A stretch of DNA of 34,837 nucleotides from an uncultured Bacilli bacterium (GTDB lineage: Bacteria > Bacillota_I > Bacilli_A > RF39 > UBA660). Below, piece by piece: positions 27,709 to 33,871 of the stretch; position 1 is the stretch's first letter, and every line of letters starts with the position of its first letter. A program made the translations under genes and the position numbers. The notes under the pieces were generated by a model that was not told the DNA's origin, did no database searches, and was given only the letters and a program-made list of their open reading frames with translations. The stretch covers positions 1-34,837 of the forward strand of contig CANROW010000013.1 of assembly GCA_947632345.1 (NCBI GenBank). Direction: 5' to 3'.

Positions 27709-27730
27709 AAAAAGCATGTAAATGCTTTTT
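27709..27730 (+). terminator. Terminator of yebC
   Basis: AAAAAGCAT (27709-27717), loop GTAA and ATGCTTTTT (27722-27730), then CTTTATAAAA. The stem is a 9-bp perfect match. The T tract lies within the 3' arm, so some readthrough into the next operon is likely. Confidence 0.7.
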
Positions 27731-27750: not shown

Positions 27751-30700
27751 ATGGTGGATATTGAAATAGTTGATGAAAAAAAATCATCATCCAACCAGTA
27801 TAATAGTCAAAAAAATAATATTGAGTTAGATGATCATTTACTAAAAATGCTAACTCCTCATTGTTTAGGATTGTTGAAAAGATTGGAAAATTATAAGAGA
27901 ACGACAGCTAATTATGCTTTTACACAAATTGAAATAAAGGCTTTACTTTATAGTCTTTTGGAAACCATAAATTTATTTGATCGTACTTATGATGAAACGA
28001 TGATTAGAAAAACCCAAAAAGATGTATTTGATGTTTTGGCTTATTTTAGTGCATCATCATTATCTGTGGAACAAAAAAAGTATGTTTGTAAAGTATTTTT
28101 TGAATATATAGGTTCTTACTTTATGAAAAATTATCCTGATGAAAAATATTTCTATGATTTATTGACGAATGATGGAATGTTGAATAATGCGATGATTAGA
28201 TCATACATTTTTTCTGAGAAATCAGCTTATAGAATGCAGCTTACTATTGAAAGAAATATGATTTTATTCATGGTCAGTATGGTCGAACTATTTGCTGGTG
28301 TCGATGATTCAACCCAAGATAAAATCGACTATATATTTCATAGTAGTAGTGAAATTGTCAGTTATTTCTTTTACTCTAATAAAGAAGTAATAGAGTCTTT
28401 TTTCAGTAAAAAAATGCTTGATAATTTTAATAAAGAAACACTTAGCTATTTATACCGAATATATGGTTTTGATGGTATGAATGACGATTTGTCACAAGCT
28501 GATGATAGATATTTAAAAGTCATCAGTGCAATGAGTGATTATATACTTCATACTACAGGAAACAATTTTTTCTTCTTTTACTATTTATTTTCTAATTTAT
28601 ATTCTAAATCGGAAGGATATCAAGAATTTGAAAAATTAGTCATCAATTATTATGATTCTTATTTTGAAAAAGATAAAGAAAAGAACTTTGATGATGCACC
28701 AAATTTTCATTTATTATTAAATTTCCTTTTATGCCAAAAATGTGATATGACGGATAATATTTTTAAAGAACGAAAACTAGATAATCAAAAGAAGTATGAG
28801 GATATATATAAGACAAAAGAATTTAGTACTTCTAATATTCTTGATAGAATGAATAATCTTGTCACACTTCACGAAACAAAGAAATTATATTACCAATTAG
28901 CATATGGTATTAGTTTTGAACAAGCGATGTATATCTGTTCAACCTATGGTGAATATTTAGAAGAATACCAAGACGAAATATCACAAGAAGACCAATGGAT
29001 ATTAGATATGCTCCAAGATATAGTCGCGACCAGTTATATAAGTCTTGAAGAAGTTGATAAAGTTCAAGAGATTCAATGGAAGATTCATAGAATCATCGAA
29101 GAAAATGGTTTTATTGGAAAGATTAAGGATGCTAATTATCCTGTATTACGTTCTTTTCTCAACAGAATGTTTATGAAAAGATATAATGCCAAATTATTTA
29201 AAGTTGATGATAATACGAAGGTTTTGTCCAAAGACAATGGTGTTTTAGTTGTTGATGCCGGCTTAAAATTTAGTATGCTAGTCAGTTGTGTTAATGCTGC
29301 TCAAAATTTCTATGATGAGCAAGAAAATTCCAAAGATAGATATAACACATCGCATTACAGTCATAATCAGGGTATTTGTTGCAGTTACATCAACAATCAA
29401 AATTTAGGGATTATCAGTTTAGATAGACCAATATTAGGTTTTTCTAATTTAAGTGATGATTGTCTCATTTCAATGGGAATAGGTGATATCTATTCTGAAC
29501 CTAGCGAGGTTGATCCTCGTAAAAGTTGTGAAGCTGACTGTTGCTCAGGGACATATTTTACAACGCCTGATAGCTTAATTGATAACACGCGTTTCGGATA
29601 TAATGAACTATTTATAGATCGTTTTTTACCACGAGATGAAAAGGGCGAGATAAAAGTCCAACCGAGCTATATTGTAGTTTATAAGTTTGATGAAAAATAT
29701 CAAAATTCTAAGCATTATAAAAATGGATTAAAAATGGCTCAAGAATTTCATATTCCTATGGTCGTTGTCGATATTTTAAAGGTTAAAGAAAATGAGAAGA
29801 AAATAATCGAGGCAATGGAAGAAGAGTTATTCAGTCAAACAACTGTCAATAAGGATTTGGTTATGAAGATTATGACGCGTTATATGAATAACTATAGTGG
29901 TTCCTTGACGATGACGCGAAGTTCTTCTGAAATAGGCAATCATTGGAATTATTATGAAGATTTTTCGGTATTGGGAATTGATCGATTTCTTTTGAAAGTA
30001 CAAAAACATTTTCGAAATTTAGAACCGAATGAAATTGTTTTGTGGAAAGAAGCCTTAGAAGAAGCATACGAAGTTGAAAAAGAGAAAAATGAACGGGCTT
30101 TAGCGATTGATGGGTATAATTATTCTTTAACTAATGAGGAATTCCTTCTCGATGATGTCATTCTCTTTAAAGAAAAATTAGAAGCTATAGTTAATGATAG
30201 AGCTGACGGCTTATTAAATGGAGATATGAATAACGATGATGTTTCATTTCATTTTTCAGATCTTTCACCAGGTGTTAAAGTACTAATTAACTTAGCTAAT
30301 CTTTTATATCCAGAAGCATATCATATGATACCTACTAATGTTGGAGTTACTGTTAAACCAACTGCTAGTGTCATTAATATGAATGAATGTTTAAAGGAAG
30401 TTTATGGCGCCGTAATGTCTTATTTTTTAAATGATTACAGCAATAATTATTTTACTAATTTGGAATGTGGCGATAGAATTACTGACAATTTTGTTAATAA
30501 TATGTTATATTTAAATAAAGACGACGATGATGTTTTTGTTAGAGAGAGCTTTTCTAACGATATTGCGATTGGTTTACTAAATAATTTAGAACATTTAATT
30601 AGTAGAACAGATTATTATGACTTTATGGAAGTTTTTAGACCAATATTAGATGAGTTACAAACGGAGCAGCAAATACTGGCATTAGAAGATGAGATATCAA

Positions 30701-30804
30701 ATCGTAGAGAAAATTTTCATTCGCTTGTTGAAAAGAATATCGCAATAATACTAGGAGCAGACTTATGTCACACGAAACATGTAAAACAAAAAATAAAAAA
30801 ATAG
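27751..30804 (+). CDS. 1017-aa cytoplasmic protein of unknown function, first gene of a four-gene operon
   Basis: ATG follows GGGGG at 27742-27746. I see no signal peptide or membrane helix. Residues ~30-520 are mostly alpha-helical and hydrophilic. A distinct block at ~530-690 contains SHYSHNQGICCSYI, ILGFSNLSDDCLISMGIGDIYS, a cysteine patch EADCCSG, YFTTPDSLID, NELFIDRF, PSYIVVYKF and FHIPMVVVDI. This block looks like a discrete alpha/beta domain, and I recall similar segments in other large gut-Firmicute proteins without a known activity. The C-terminal ~300 residues are again helical and acidic. The downstream ADP-ribosylglycohydrolase makes an ADP-ribosyltransferase tempting, but no R-S-E or H-Y-E motif set is clear. 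The gene is tightly linked to a kinase-like gene 11 bases downstream. Confidence 0.8.
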   Translation: MVDIEIVDEKKSSSNQYNSQKNNIELDDHLLKMLTPHCLGLLKRLENYKRTTANYAFTQIEIKALLYSLLETINLFDRTYDETMIRKTQKDVFDVLAYFSASSLSVEQKKYVCKVFFEYIGSYFMKNYPDEKYFYDLLTNDGMLNNAMIRSYIFSEKSAYRMQLTIERNMILFMVSMVELFAGVDDSTQDKIDYIFHSSSEIVSYFFYSNKEVIESFFSKKMLDNFNKETLSYLYRIYGFDGMNDDLSQADDRYLKVISAMSDYILHTTGNNFFFFYYLFSNLYSKSEGYQEFEKLVINYYDSYFEKDKEKNFDDAPNFHLLLNFLLCQKCDMTDNIFKERKLDNQKKYEDIYKTKEFSTSNILDRMNNLVTLHETKKLYYQLAYGISFEQAMYICSTYGEYLEEYQDEISQEDQWILDMLQDIVATSYISLEEVDKVQEIQWKIHRIIEENGFIGKIKDANYPVLRSFLNRMFMKRYNAKLFKVDDNTKVLSKDNGVLVVDAGLKFSMLVSCVNAAQNFYDEQENSKDRYNTSHYSHNQGICCSYINNQNLGIISLDRPILGFSNLSDDCLISMGIGDIYSEPSEVDPRKSCEADCCSGTYFTTPDSLIDNTRFGYNELFIDRFLPRDEKGEIKVQPSYIVVYKFDEKYQNSKHYKNGLKMAQEFHIPMVVVDILKVKENEKKIIEAMEEELFSQTTVNKDLVMKIMTRYMNNYSGSLTMTRSSSEIGNHWNYYEDFSVLGIDRFLLKVQKHFRNLEPNEIVLWKEALEEAYEVEKEKNERALAIDGYNYSLTNEEFLLDDVILFKEKLEAIVNDRADGLLNGDMNNDDVSFHFSDLSPGVKVLINLANLLYPEAYHMIPTNVGVTVKPTASVINMNECLKEVYGAVMSYFLNDYSNNYFTNLECGDRITDNFVNNMLYLNKDDDDVFVRESFSNDIAIGLLNNLEHLISRTDYYDFMEVFRPILDELQTEQQILALEDEISNRRENFHSLVEKNIAIILGADLCHTKHVKQKIKK

Positions 30805-30815
30805 GGGAGTTTTAG

Positions 30816-31703
30816 ATGATAAAAAGAGATGATTGTTCACACAATAGTATAATTTATTATGAAGACGAAATGCATCAAGTTTACCTAGGTGGAACAGGCG
30901 ATATGTATCTTGTCCATTTAAATGGTAAAGATTATCTTTTTAAACCGGCCTATCGCAAGAATAGTTTTGAAATTGAGAAATTTCGGGGAATTGTTCAAGA
31001 GTGTGCTTATCACGTACAGTGTTTGATTGATTATCCTTCAGCTATTAGATGTTTTTATGTCGAATGTTGTAATCCCGTTATAGGTAATTCTGTCGTTGGA
31101 GCTATTCAAGATAAGATTGAGACTTTGCCAAATGCAATTGATTATGGAAGAATTCAAGATAGATATATTCATAAATTACCACCATCAGTAATCAATCAAT
31201 TTTTAAGAGAATTTTCAACGGACTATTTATTATGTAATTTTGATGCTCACGGCGGTAATTTTATAACTGATGTGAATGGTGTTGTTAGAGGAATAGATAA
31301 AGAACAATCTTTTCGCTATTTAGATGATGACAGAGCTCAAAAACCAAGTATTAATTATTCGCCAAATACAGAATTGTATGGGGAAAGAGAGCCAATATAT
31401 AATACTATTTTTAGAGCTTATATCAATGGTAAAATAGATATTGATTTTGATATTATTAGAAAATACACAGCTAAAATCGATTCGGTATCTGATGAATTTT
31501 ATCGTACGTTATTTCAGTCATATTGTGATGCTTGCTATGAATATTTTGGTAGTGATCCCATCGCAAAAAGTAATAAGATTTTGAAAAGAAAACAGGATAT
31601 GAGTGACAATATGGAAGAGTTCTTTGAAAAATTAATTGTTATGCGCGATGATAAATTGAAGAATGGTGGAGGAAAAGTTTATGGAAAATATTGGAAAACA
31701 TAA
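30816..31703 (+). CDS. HipA/PI-kinase-like enzyme, unknown substrate
   Basis: 295 aa. A glycine-rich strand pair LGGTGDMYLVHLNGKDYLFKPA supplies a nucleotide loop and K43. The catalytic loop is LLCNF-D143-A-H-GGN148-F, and the metal aspartate is D161 in GIDKEQSF. D...N spacing and the D-KE block match HipA, phosphatidylinositol-kinase and related atypical kinase folds. Whether it phosphorylates a protein, lipid or small molecule is unknown. There is no HipB-like partner, so a standard HipBA toxin-antitoxin is unlikely. ATG follows GGGGAG. The 3' end overlaps the PHP gene by 23 bases, so the two are translated together. Confidence 0.72.
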   Translation: MIKRDDCSHNSIIYYEDEMHQVYLGGTGDMYLVHLNGKDYLFKPAYRKNSFEIEKFRGIVQECAYHVQCLIDYPSAIRCFYVECCNPVIGNSVVGAIQDKIETLPNAIDYGRIQDRYIHKLPPSVINQFLREFSTDYLLCNFDAHGGNFITDVNGVVRGIDKEQSFRYLDDDRAQKPSINYSPNTELYGEREPIYNTIFRAYINGKIDIDFDIIRKYTAKIDSVSDEFYRTLFQSYCDACYEYFGSDPIAKSNKILKRKQDMSDNMEEFFEKLIVMRDDKLKNGGGKVYGKYWKT

Positions 31704-32847
31704 TTATCACTCACATACTTATCGTTGTGGACATGCAGCAAAAGTTCCTGACAAAGATTATATTGAAAAAGCGATAAAAGATGATTTTACGCAATATGGA
31801 ATATCTGATCATATTCCTGTACATCCAATTTTTTATGGTGATAGTATTATGCGTATGCATGATAATGATGTTGATGATTATTTAGAATCAATTGCGAAAT
31901 TAAAGAGAATCTATAGTAGTGATATCAAAGTATATAGTGCTTTTGAAGCAGAATATGATGAAATTATTGAAGCTTATTTATGTCAGCTTCGCAATCGATG
32001 TGATTATATGTTATTAGGGCAGCATTATATTTTGAATAAGAATATTAGAAGAAGTGGAGATTATCCTATTGAGTACGCTAAAAAAGTATGTACGGCGATT
32101 GAAAGTGGGATATTTGATATTGTTGCTCATCCAGACATATTTATGAAATATTTCTATGACATAACAGATGAAAGAACGAAAAAGCTTTTTTTAAAAAATG
32201 CTTTGCTTGCGGCAAAAATGATTTGTGAAAAAGCTTTGGGTTATGGAATACCGTTAGAAATCAATTTAGGTGATGTTGGCGATTTGGATAAAAACATCAT
32301 CATCAAAGATTTAATTAGATATCCGAATGATTTATTTTGGGATGTTGCTAAAGAAATGGGTAATGCTGTGGTAGTTGGAATAGATGCTCATTCTCCTATG
32401 CAAATAGATCTTCGCGAACTATATTTAGAGAGGATTGGTCGAAGGATTAATTTACAAAAGCTCGCCTTTGTAACTGACGATTTTTGTCCTGTTTCTAATC
32501 GAAAAAATAATATGAAATTATCTAGTGCTTACGATAAAACTGAAGAACAATTGACGAGCGTTGAATCACGATTAGTGGCTAGTTATATTGACGATTATTT
32601 GCTTGAAGAAAATGATGGCGATTTAAAGAGTTATATGGCTCGAAGAATTACTCCACCAGCCAATAAGTACAGTTCATCTATTCCATTACCAAAATTGACT
32701 GAAAATTATCAAAAGGAATTACTCAATGTTGTCAATCAATCGATTGATGAGAATGCAAAAAGTAAAGAAAATATTAAAGAAGTGATAGTTAGCGATATTG
32801 ATAATTACTATGGCGCTAAACAAAAGAAATTGAAAAAAATAAAATAA
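31681..32847 (+). CDS. PHP-domain phosphoesterase (histidinol-phosphatase-like) with C-terminal extension
   Basis: 388 aa from ATG 31681, with GGAGG at 31668-31672; a longer frame from 31663 begins upstream of that site. PHP metal ligands: H10-x-H12, H18 in CGHA, SDH (~residues 44-46), E in FEAEYDE, GQHY, VAHPD and DAHS. The full trinuclear site looks intact. The fold matches histidinol phosphatases of the HisK type, but no histidine genes are nearby and the linkage to a kinase-like gene suggests another phosphoester. About 115 residues beyond the domain (~275-388) are charged, end in QKKLKKIK and have no family I recognise. Confidence 0.8.
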   Translation: MENIGKHNYHSHTYRCGHAAKVPDKDYIEKAIKDDFTQYGISDHIPVHPIFYGDSIMRMHDNDVDDYLESIAKLKRIYSSDIKVYSAFEAEYDEIIEAYLCQLRNRCDYMLLGQHYILNKNIRRSGDYPIEYAKKVCTAIESGIFDIVAHPDIFMKYFYDITDERTKKLFLKNALLAAKMICEKALGYGIPLEINLGDVGDLDKNIIIKDLIRYPNDLFWDVAKEMGNAVVVGIDAHSPMQIDLRELYLERIGRRINLQKLAFVTDDFCPVSNRKNNMKLSSAYDKTEEQLTSVESRLVASYIDDYLLEENDGDLKSYMARRITPPANKYSSSIPLPKLTENYQKELLNVVNQSIDENAKSKENIKEVIVSDIDNYYGAKQKKLKKIK

Positions 32848-32860
32848 ATTAGGTGAATTA

Positions 32861-33841
32861 ATGGATAAAAATAATATTAAAGAAAAAAGAGTTGAAGATG
32901 GTCTTTTAGGTTTTGCTGTTGGTGATGCCCTAGGCGTTCCCGTTGAATTTGTAGAACGATCAACTTTAGAGAGTAAGCCGGTTAAGGATATGCTGGAATA
33001 TGGTACTCATAATCAGCCAAAAGGTACTTGGAGTGATGATACATCAATGACAATTGCTACTATGGATAGTATCATTGAGATAAAGAAAATTGATTATGAA
33101 AAAATGGCCAATAACTTTCTTTTATGGATGACTAATAAAAAATATAACCCTCACGGTTATTTATTTGATATTGGTTTAACGACTAGTAAAGCGCTTCGTA
33201 AATATCTAATTGAAAGAGGAGCTGCTCAAAAAGCTGGAAGTACAAATTATTATGATAATGGCAATGGTTCATTGATGCGAATGTTACCTTTAGTTTATTA
33301 TTTTGATAATTATGAGTTACCAGATAGAGAAATGGCCACTATTATCAATAATGTATCATCTATTACCCATGGACATCCAATCAGTTGCTTGGGGTGCTAC
33401 TTATATGTCAAATATGCTATGAATATTTTAGAAGGGCAAGATTTTAATCAAGCTTATAGAAGTCTACAGCAGGTTGATGTGTCTATGTATGATGAAGATA
33501 CAGTTAAATTTTATAGTCGAGTATTAGATGGTCACCTTTCAGAAATAGCAGATTCTTCACTAATTAAATCGAGTGGTTTCATCGTCGATACATTAGAAGC
33601 AGCAATATGGTGTAACCTTCAAAATAGCAATTATAAAGATGCTGTTCTCCAAGCTATTAATTTAGGAAATGATACGGATACAATTGGTGCACTTACTGGT
33701 GGATTAGCTGGCATTATGTATGGTAGTGAATCTATACCAAAAGAGTGGCTTGATTCATTAGCCCAAAAAGATTATTTACAGGAATTGTCTAAAAATTATC
33801 AAAAGACGATTTTTGAGAACAAAATTAAAATTAAAAAGTGA
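32861..33841 (+). CDS. ADP-ribosylglycohydrolase (DraG-like)
   Basis: 326 aa. The family signature is complete: GLLGFAVGDALGVPVEF near the N-terminus, W57-S-D59-D60-T61-S metal site, NGNGSLMRMLPL, SSITHGHPIS and D271-T-D273-TIGALTGGLAG. Members remove ADP-ribose from arginine or other residues of proteins, or cleave related ADP-ribosyl compounds. The dinitrogenase partner of true DraG is not relevant here. Start ATG follows AGGTG. It is 13 bases after the PHP gene and closes the four-gene operon with a strong terminator. A role as the eraser of a modification made by an upstream gene is an inference. Confidence 0.93.
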   Translation: MDKNNIKEKRVEDGLLGFAVGDALGVPVEFVERSTLESKPVKDMLEYGTHNQPKGTWSDDTSMTIATMDSIIEIKKIDYEKMANNFLLWMTNKKYNPHGYLFDIGLTTSKALRKYLIERGAAQKAGSTNYYDNGNGSLMRMLPLVYYFDNYELPDREMATIINNVSSITHGHPISCLGCYLYVKYAMNILEGQDFNQAYRSLQQVDVSMYDEDTVKFYSRVLDGHLSEIADSSLIKSSGFIVDTLEAAIWCNLQNSNYKDAVLQAINLGNDTDTIGALTGGLAGIMYGSESIPKEWLDSLAQKDYLQELSKNYQKTIFENKIKIKK

Positions 33842-33871
33842 TTGTAATTAGAATGATTTACAATCACTTTT
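33834..33871 (+). terminator. Terminator of the four-gene operon
   Basis: AAAAGTGATTGTAA (33834-33847) and TTACAATCACTTTT (33858-33871) form a 14-bp perfect stem with a 10-base loop. The TGA stop at 33839-33841 lies inside the 5' arm. The T run is short. Confidence 0.78.

What the first reader, a model, noticed from the sequence alone, without database searches (positions are those of the whole stretch)
27751..33871. Four-gene operon: unknown 1017-aa protein, atypical kinase, PHP phosphoesterase, ADP-ribosylglycohydrolase
The genes are 11 bases apart, overlapping by 23 bases and 13 bases apart, and end in one terminator. Three of the four handle phosphoryl or ADP-ribosyl groups: one could add phosphate, one remove phosphate and one remove ADP-ribose. 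I know of no described system with this set. It could be a modification/demodification circuit, a nucleotide-metabolite salvage route, or a defence/toxin module with its reversal enzymes.
Basis: inference. Interest (0 to 1): 0.75.

Follow-up and report, generated by a model that had tools for sequence, protein, structure and literature searches.

The report
Kinase-phosphoesterase-ADP-ribose hydrolase gene module
Four neighbouring genes in a small gut bacterium stay together in sister species while their sequences change fast, and elsewhere the kinase is repeatedly fused to enzymes that attach ADP-ribose, so this looks like an undescribed attack-or-defence module that carries its own eraser enzyme.

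Summary
The four genes are real, intact and tightly packed; the claimed terminator is not supported. The full set recurs in the same order at the same site (after yebC) in two other species of the genus. A third keeps only the large protein and kinase. Three sisters with both flanks held lack it. The genes diverge far faster (35-59% identity) than flanking yebC (87-91%), and catalytic motifs are kept.

The large protein has a core domain without Pfam match (residues ~487-697), found so far only in this bacterial family. In three genomes of other genera it is fused to the kinase. The kinase has a PI4K-II/CtkA-like fold. In other genomes the same kinase is fused to R-S-E-type ADP-ribosyltransferase (ART) domains, including in mycobacteriophage virion proteins. 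Two other genomes put a PHP gene directly before such an ART-kinase gene. Three of 13 close relatives of the hydrolase abut Pfam ART genes.

Best reading: a cytoplasmic conflict module. The large protein and kinase stand where ART+kinase stands elsewhere, the hydrolase is the Imm-ARG-like eraser, and the PHP enzyme probably reverses or processes the kinase product. ART identity of the large protein is inferred from context: profile comparison was negative, its fold untested. Biochemistry is untested.

The parts
27751..30804 (+). p1: 1017-aa orphan protein, helical N-terminal and C-terminal parts around one conserved core
   Evidence: ORF; no Pfam match; orthologues L139, L140, L057 at 35-36% identity; no membrane segment
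29209..29841 (+). P1DOM, the conserved core of p1 (about residues 487-697); GICCSY 541, D579, TRFGYNE 613-619, P638
   Evidence: 47 of 385 genomes of the order; alignment A5 invariant D, R, E, P; fused directly before the kinase in L110, L013, L014; coordinates
30816..31703 (+). p2: 295-aa PI4K-II/CtkA/HipA-like kinase; glycine loop 25-31, K43, D143, N148, D161
   Evidence: AlphaFold2 model pLDDT 82; PI4K-II Z 16, CtkA Z 14; catalytic residues invariant in A2
31681..32847 (+). p3: PHP-domain phosphoesterase (upstream alternative start 31663)
   Evidence: Pfam PHP E 4e-9, HisJ-like below cut-off; Shine-Dalgarno at 31681; HSH, SDH, E, GQH, AHP, DAH motifs intact
32861..33841 (+). p4: ADP-ribosylglycohydrolase of the DraG/ARH type
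   Evidence: Pfam ADP_ribosyl_GH E 6e-70; WSDDTSM and GNDTDT metal motifs intact
27709..27730 (+). A+T-rich hairpin AAAAAGCAT-GTAA-ATGCTTTTT before a T-rich stretch, between yebC and p1; possible end of the yebC unit
   Evidence: read from sequence printed; not listed by the scan

Best explanation
A compact, fast-evolving, cytoplasmic conflict module built on ADP-ribose chemistry. The writer half is the large protein (its P1DOM core) together with the PI4K-II/CtkA-like kinase. This pair occupies the place that an ADP-ribosyltransferase (ART)-kinase pair occupies in other genomes and phages, and most likely modifies a macromolecule of the cell or of an invader. The eraser half is the ADP-ribosylglycohydrolase, which would remove ADP-ribose, protecting the cell or resetting the system as Imm-ARG proteins are thought to do for toxin ARTs. 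The PHP phosphoesterase probably removes or processes the phosphate that the kinase adds. Shown: gene order, conservation as a unit, predicted kinase fold, intact catalytic motifs, kinase-ART and kinase-P1DOM fusions, PHP next to ART-kinase, hydrolase next to ART genes. Inferred: that P1DOM transfers ADP-ribose, the targets, which enzyme undoes which, and whether the role is anti-phage, anti-competitor or internal.
For: Same gene set and order in G386 and G385 and a reduced set in G209, at one site, absent from three sisters with both flanks held. Module identity 35-60% against yebC 85-91%. Kinase fused to R-S-E ART-like N-termini in seven loci, 0 of 9,600 shuffles, to Pfam ADPrib_exo_Tox in mycobacteriophage proteins, and to P1DOM in three giant proteins. 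PHP gene directly before ART-kinase gene in two other genomes. Three of 13 close p4 relatives directly follow Pfam ART genes. Imm-ARG precedent (PMC3482391).
Against: P1DOM shows no profile similarity to the ARTs tested and its fold could not be searched alone. The His in its first core strand is not conserved, also not in the window's copy. The PHP subfamily also sits beside or is fused to unrelated domains. G209 keeps p1 and kinase without p3 and p4, so the erasers are not obligatory. No defence model matches, and no secretion signal was seen.
Confidence: 0.45

Rival explanations
1. An endogenous regulatory cycle: reversible phosphorylation and ADP-ribosylation of a house protein, as DraT/DraG control nitrogenase reductase, with no conflict role.
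For: p4 resembles DRAG (E 9e-42) and Tri1 (E 1e-53); all enzymes look cytoplasmic and active; writer and eraser in one operon would suit regulation.
Against: Patchy presence within the genus and fast divergence; no DraT homologue seen; kinase relatives occur in phage virion proteins.
Confidence: 0.2
2. P1DOM is not a transferase of ADP-ribose but another enzyme or binding domain; kinase and P1DOM form one machine (for example a lipid or protein kinase with its substrate-recognition protein), and the hydrolase is an accessory gene at a shared conflict locus.
For: No profile or fold evidence for an ART fold in P1DOM; P1DOM-kinase fusions exist without a hydrolase beside them; kinase model is closest to PI4-kinases.
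Against: The same kinase is fused to genuine ARTs elsewhere, and p4-type hydrolases adjoin ART genes in three genomes.
Confidence: 0.27
3. Chance neighbours: a metabolic or salvage operon, or unrelated genes collected at a variable site after yebC.
For: The site is variable between sisters, and an extra KilA-N gene is inserted in one of them.
Against: Same order in three species at 35-59% identity, 11/13-base gaps and a 23-base overlap, and separate kinase-P1DOM and PHP/ART-kinase linkages in other genera.
Confidence: 0.05

Closest known systems
Imm-ARG with R-S-E ART toxins (Zhang et al. 2012, PMC3482391)
   Same: An ADP-ribosylglycohydrolase gene next to a presumed ADP-ribosylating partner; the same hydrolase type follows Pfam ART genes in related genomes
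   Different: Here the partner's ART identity is unproven, and a kinase and a PHP phosphoesterase are added; no secretion or polymorphic-toxin trafficking domain was seen
Tre1-Tri1 of type VI secretion (from my own knowledge; NCBIfam model Tri1)
   Same: p4 matches the Tri1 model weakly (182 bits)
   Different: Far below the curated cut-off of 490 bits; no type VI genes seen here
DraT-DraG nitrogenase control (from my own knowledge)
   Same: Hydrolase of the DraG type in a writer/eraser setting
   Different: p4 below the DRAG cut-off (143 of 337 bits); no DraT or nitrogenase link; fast evolution and patchy presence
Phage polyvalent / MuF effector proteins (PMC5512222, PMC9503650)
   Same: Kinase and ART in one virion protein in mycobacteriophages; MuF plus kinase in Clostridia phage-like loci
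   Different: The polyvalent kinases described there are Ser/Thr/Tyr-type lacking the C-lobe, not this PI4K-II/CtkA-like type; the window has a chromosomal operon with separate genes
CtkA and HipA-like kinases, type II PI4-kinases
   Same: Predicted fold and catalytic motifs of p2
   Different: About 11-14% identity; substrate unknown; no HipB-type partner gene

Membership tests
PI4K-II/CtkA/HipA-type kinase fold (p2) | Kinase fold | tested here: met
   Z 15.3-16.1 to PI4K-II, 13.5-14.0 to CtkA, over 212-247 residues, rmsd 4.1-4.5; Foldseek best hit CtkA E 8e-6
PI4K-II/CtkA/HipA-type kinase fold (p2) | ATP-binding and catalytic residues (glycine loop, K, D...N, D) | tested here: met
   K43, D143, N148, D161 invariant in 11 sequences
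PI4K-II/CtkA/HipA-type kinase fold (p2) | Phosphotransfer activity and substrate | not testable with these tools
   needs biochemistry
ADP-ribosylglycohydrolase (DraG/ARH) (p4) | Pfam ADP_ribosyl_GH over cut-off | tested here: met
   236.6 bits against 26.2
ADP-ribosylglycohydrolase (DraG/ARH) (p4) | Metal-binding acidic motifs | tested here: met
   WSDDTSM at 57, GNDTDT at 269
Tri1 or DRAG equivalogs (p4) | NCBIfam curated cut-off | tested here: not met
   182 of 490 bits (Tri1), 143 of 337 bits (DRAG)
PHP / histidinol-phosphatase HisJ (p3) | PHP domain with its metal ligands | tested here: met
   Pfam 37.4 bits against 26.4; motifs present
PHP / histidinol-phosphatase HisJ (p3) | HisJ family cut-off | tested here: not met
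   68.8 of 90.2 bits
ADP-ribosyltransferase (for P1DOM) | Sequence-profile similarity to a known ART family | tested here: not met
   hhalign probability 0.2% against ADPrib_exo_Tox-type ARTs; no Pfam match in 28 members; other ART families not compared
ADP-ribosyltransferase (for P1DOM) | ART fold | tested here: inconclusive
   full-length model; searches filled by helical parts
ADP-ribosyltransferase (for P1DOM) | NAD+-dependent transfer | not testable with these tools
   needs biochemistry
R-S-E ADP-ribosyltransferase (N-termini of ART-KIN relatives) | R, STS and ExE motifs in order | tested here: met
   seven loci, 0 of 9,600 shuffles; HMM E 3e-4 to 8e-3 for L017, L008, L009; no Pfam call
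Imm-ARG (p4) | Gene adjacent to an R-S-E ART toxin | tested here: inconclusive
   True for relatives L117, L118, L127; in the window the partner is P1DOM, of unproven class
Known anti-phage defence systems (PADLOC) | Match to a PADLOC model | tested here: not met

The most novel reading that the evidence does not exclude
A two-layer modification system: one enzyme adds ADP-ribose and the partner kinase phosphorylates the same target or the ADP-ribosyl adduct, with a matched eraser for each layer (hydrolase for ADP-ribose, PHP for phosphate). The ART-plus-kinase pairing would then be an old writer shared by gut bacteria and phage virions, with P1DOM a new family of transferases.
Probability: 0.2. 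Interest if true: 0.85.

Novelty: new variant of a known kind. Interest (0 to 1): 0.6.

Why it matters
A kinase family without a Pfam entry is repeatedly joined to ADP-ribosylating enzymes, in gut Bacilli and Clostridia and in virion proteins of mycobacteriophages. If borne out, phosphorylation and ADP-ribosylation are used together in bacterial conflicts. An operon with separate writer and eraser genes offers a system in which each step can be tested alone.

Tried and rejected
Pfam, NCBIfam, PHROGs and PADLOC scans of p1 gave nothing useful. PDB sequence searches with p1, p2 and their profiles gave only chance matches. A profile-profile test of P1DOM against ADPrib_exo_Tox-type ARTs was negative. 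Viral contigs gave no p1 relative and three phage-like kinase loci. In a class-wide sample of 296 genomes P1DOM was found only in the window's own family. Plasmids hold no relative of the kinase. Rfam: no RNA family in the window. Considered and set aside: nucleotide salvage (no salvage genes linked) and CDC123/R2K ATP-grasp operons with ADP-ribosylglycohydrolase (PMC4431377; no ATP-grasp gene recognised here). Literature searches for this gene set found no description, but the library is open-access only.
Full report
OBSERVATION. Four + strand ORFs are present at the stated coordinates: p1 27751-30804 (1017 aa), p2 30816-31703 (295 aa), p3 to 32847, p4 32861-33841 (326 aa). Gaps of 11 and 13 bases are exact. 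For p3 the ATG at 31681 has a GGAGG Shine-Dalgarno and matches the orthologues' start, giving the 23-base overlap. The terminator after p4 is not supported; an A+T-rich hairpin before a T-rich stretch separates yebC from p1 (27709-27730, read from the sequence).

WHERE IT LIES. The window is part of a 1.19-Mb, 78%-complete genome. From my own knowledge this is the RF39/UBA660 group of small-genome gut Bacilli. Upstream are Tad-type pilus genes and yebC (named from their sequences, no family scan run).

THE FOUR PROTEINS. p3 is a PHP protein (Pfam E 4e-9; HisJ-like but below the HisJ cut-off) and p4 an ADP-ribosylglycohydrolase (E 6e-70; best curated models Tri1 and DRAG, both below cut-off). 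Their metal-binding motifs are intact. p2 has no Pfam match, but its AlphaFold2 model (pLDDT 82) matches type II PI4-kinases (Z 15.3-16.1) and H. pylori CtkA (Z 13.5-14.0), with K43, D143, N148 and D161 invariant in 11 relatives. p1 is an orphan with one conserved core, here called P1DOM (residues about 487-697), whose invariant residues are D579, R614, E619 and P638. P1DOM was found in 47 of 385 genomes of the order, all listed as the window's family, and in a class-wide sample only in that family. None of the four proteins shows a membrane segment by hydropathy.

CONSERVED AS A UNIT. In the genus, L139 (G386) and L140 (G385) carry p1, kinase, PHP, a 423/426-aa p1-like protein without the core, hydrolase and a p1 paralogue, in that order, at the same site after yebC; L140 also has a KilA-N gene between yebC and p1. 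L057 (G209) keeps p1 and kinase but no PHP or hydrolase, with a p1-like fragment and a second p1. L138, L142 and L143 have yebC and its upstream neighbours without the module; L144 starts inside yebC and also lacks it; L141 ends too soon to judge. Protein identity within the module is 30-60%, where yebC is 85-91% and tadB/tadC 55-74%. Kept order with fast divergence and patchy presence is typical of conflict genes (inference).

THE KINASE TRAVELS WITH ADP-RIBOSYLTRANSFERASES. (a) In L110, L013 and L014, giant proteins of 2235-2339 aa end in P1DOM followed by the kinase; P1DOM scores 25 and 17 bits in L110 and L013, while L014 is weak on its own but aligns with them; kinase E 1e-106 to 1e-80. 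(b) In L008/L009, L010, L012, L015, L016 and L017 the kinase follows a ~260-aa N-terminus with the R-S-E ART motif order [YF]RG...STS...ExE: of 955 distinct ORFs only these seven match, and 0 of 9,600 shuffles. An HMM built from Pfam-identified ARTs ranks L017, L008 and L009 next after its training sequences (E 3e-4, 3.5e-3, 8e-3), although Pfam itself misses them. The pattern was written after these sequences had been seen and catches only 3 of the 21 training ARTs, so the HMM ranking is the more independent test. (c) In mycobacteriophages the kinase lies in the same protein as Pfam ADPrib_exo_Tox: L181 (VG15 11-177, kinase 545-708, ART 984-1165) and L182 (kinase 281-457, ART 1158-1332), annotated by depositors as minor capsid/ADP-ribosyltransferase fusion and ADP-ribosyltransferase. 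(d) In L015/L109 and L016/L018 a PHP gene directly precedes the ART-kinase gene, so PHP and kinase are linked outside the genus too; each pair is one genome seen twice. (e) L007 and L022 combine Phage_Mu_F with the kinase.

THE HYDROLASE SITS BESIDE ART GENES. Of 13 close relatives of p4 in 146 genomes (E below 1e-60), three directly follow a gene with Pfam ADPrib_exo_Tox: L117 (E 1.4e-13, 5-base gap), L127 (E 8.8e-17, overlapping) and L118 (E 4e-29, 261 bases). With such an ART gene in 25 of 146 genomes, chance would give almost none (inference). Zhang et al. 2012 (PMC3482391) report that Imm-ARG associates strictly with R-S-E ART toxins and probably reverses them.

MECHANISM. The simplest reading is that p1 plus kinase stand in for the ART-kinase pair, p4 is the ADP-ribose eraser, and p3 removes or processes the kinase's phosphate. 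Shown: gene linkage, fusions, predicted kinase fold, intact catalytic motifs. Inferred: ADP-ribose transfer by P1DOM, targets, and role. The weak point is P1DOM: profile comparison with ARTs was negative, the His of its first core strand is not conserved, and its fold could not be searched alone. The versions in L013, L014 and L110 read H...STS...YNE, which resembles an ART pattern but is not proof. The PHP subfamily also occurs with other partners, including N-termini that look like a family-10 glycosidase (motif reading only), so its pairing with the kinase is not exclusive.

NOVELTY. An enzymatic immunity protein next to an ADP-ribosylating toxin is known. Recurrent coupling of a PI4K-II/CtkA-like kinase with ARTs across gut bacteria and phage virion proteins, and the operon that separates these parts and adds PHP, were not found described in the open-access papers searched. 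I file it as a new variant of a known kind.

Noticed in passing
L117:3-7430, L127:3-7952, L013:1767-8786, L014:1971-8750, L110:8658-15365: Giant multidomain proteins (2200-2650 aa or more) in this bacterial family carry ART, transglutaminase-like, DUF4116, P1DOM and kinase domains in different mixes.
   Followed up: partly
L113:1007-4396, L112:2960-6187, L115:8149-10728: PHP relatives of p3 are fused to or follow N-termini that read like a family-10 glycosidase (TQMHID...LPIEVTEFD), and several end in a membrane segment.
   Followed up: no
L011:3030-6119: 1029-aa protein: possible ART-like N-terminus, an HD-type phosphohydrolase-like stretch (HTRRV...HDIGR), then the same kinase; a possible stand-in for PHP. 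Motif reading only, no Pfam match.
   Followed up: no
L008:9001-9447, L010:6643-7095, L012:7742-8215: A related small protein of about 150 aa of unknown function adjoins the ART-kinase gene in three loci; a candidate partner or immunity gene.
   Followed up: no
L153:8346-9932 (G000 contig 18): The window's own genome holds a second, distant P1DOM protein of 528 aa, with a HSS motif in the first core strand.
   Followed up: partly
L080:388-2358 (G296 contig 40): 656-aa protein with an N-terminal FVFHVTNSVFAEKIKEEGL stretch that resembles another ART-like start (motif reading only), fused to the kinase.
   Followed up: no
L139:8066-9346, L140:8667-9938, L057:8836-10110: A 423-426-aa p1-like protein without the P1DOM core is kept in three sister species beside the module; possibly a regulator or scaffold. 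The window lacks it.
   Followed up: partly
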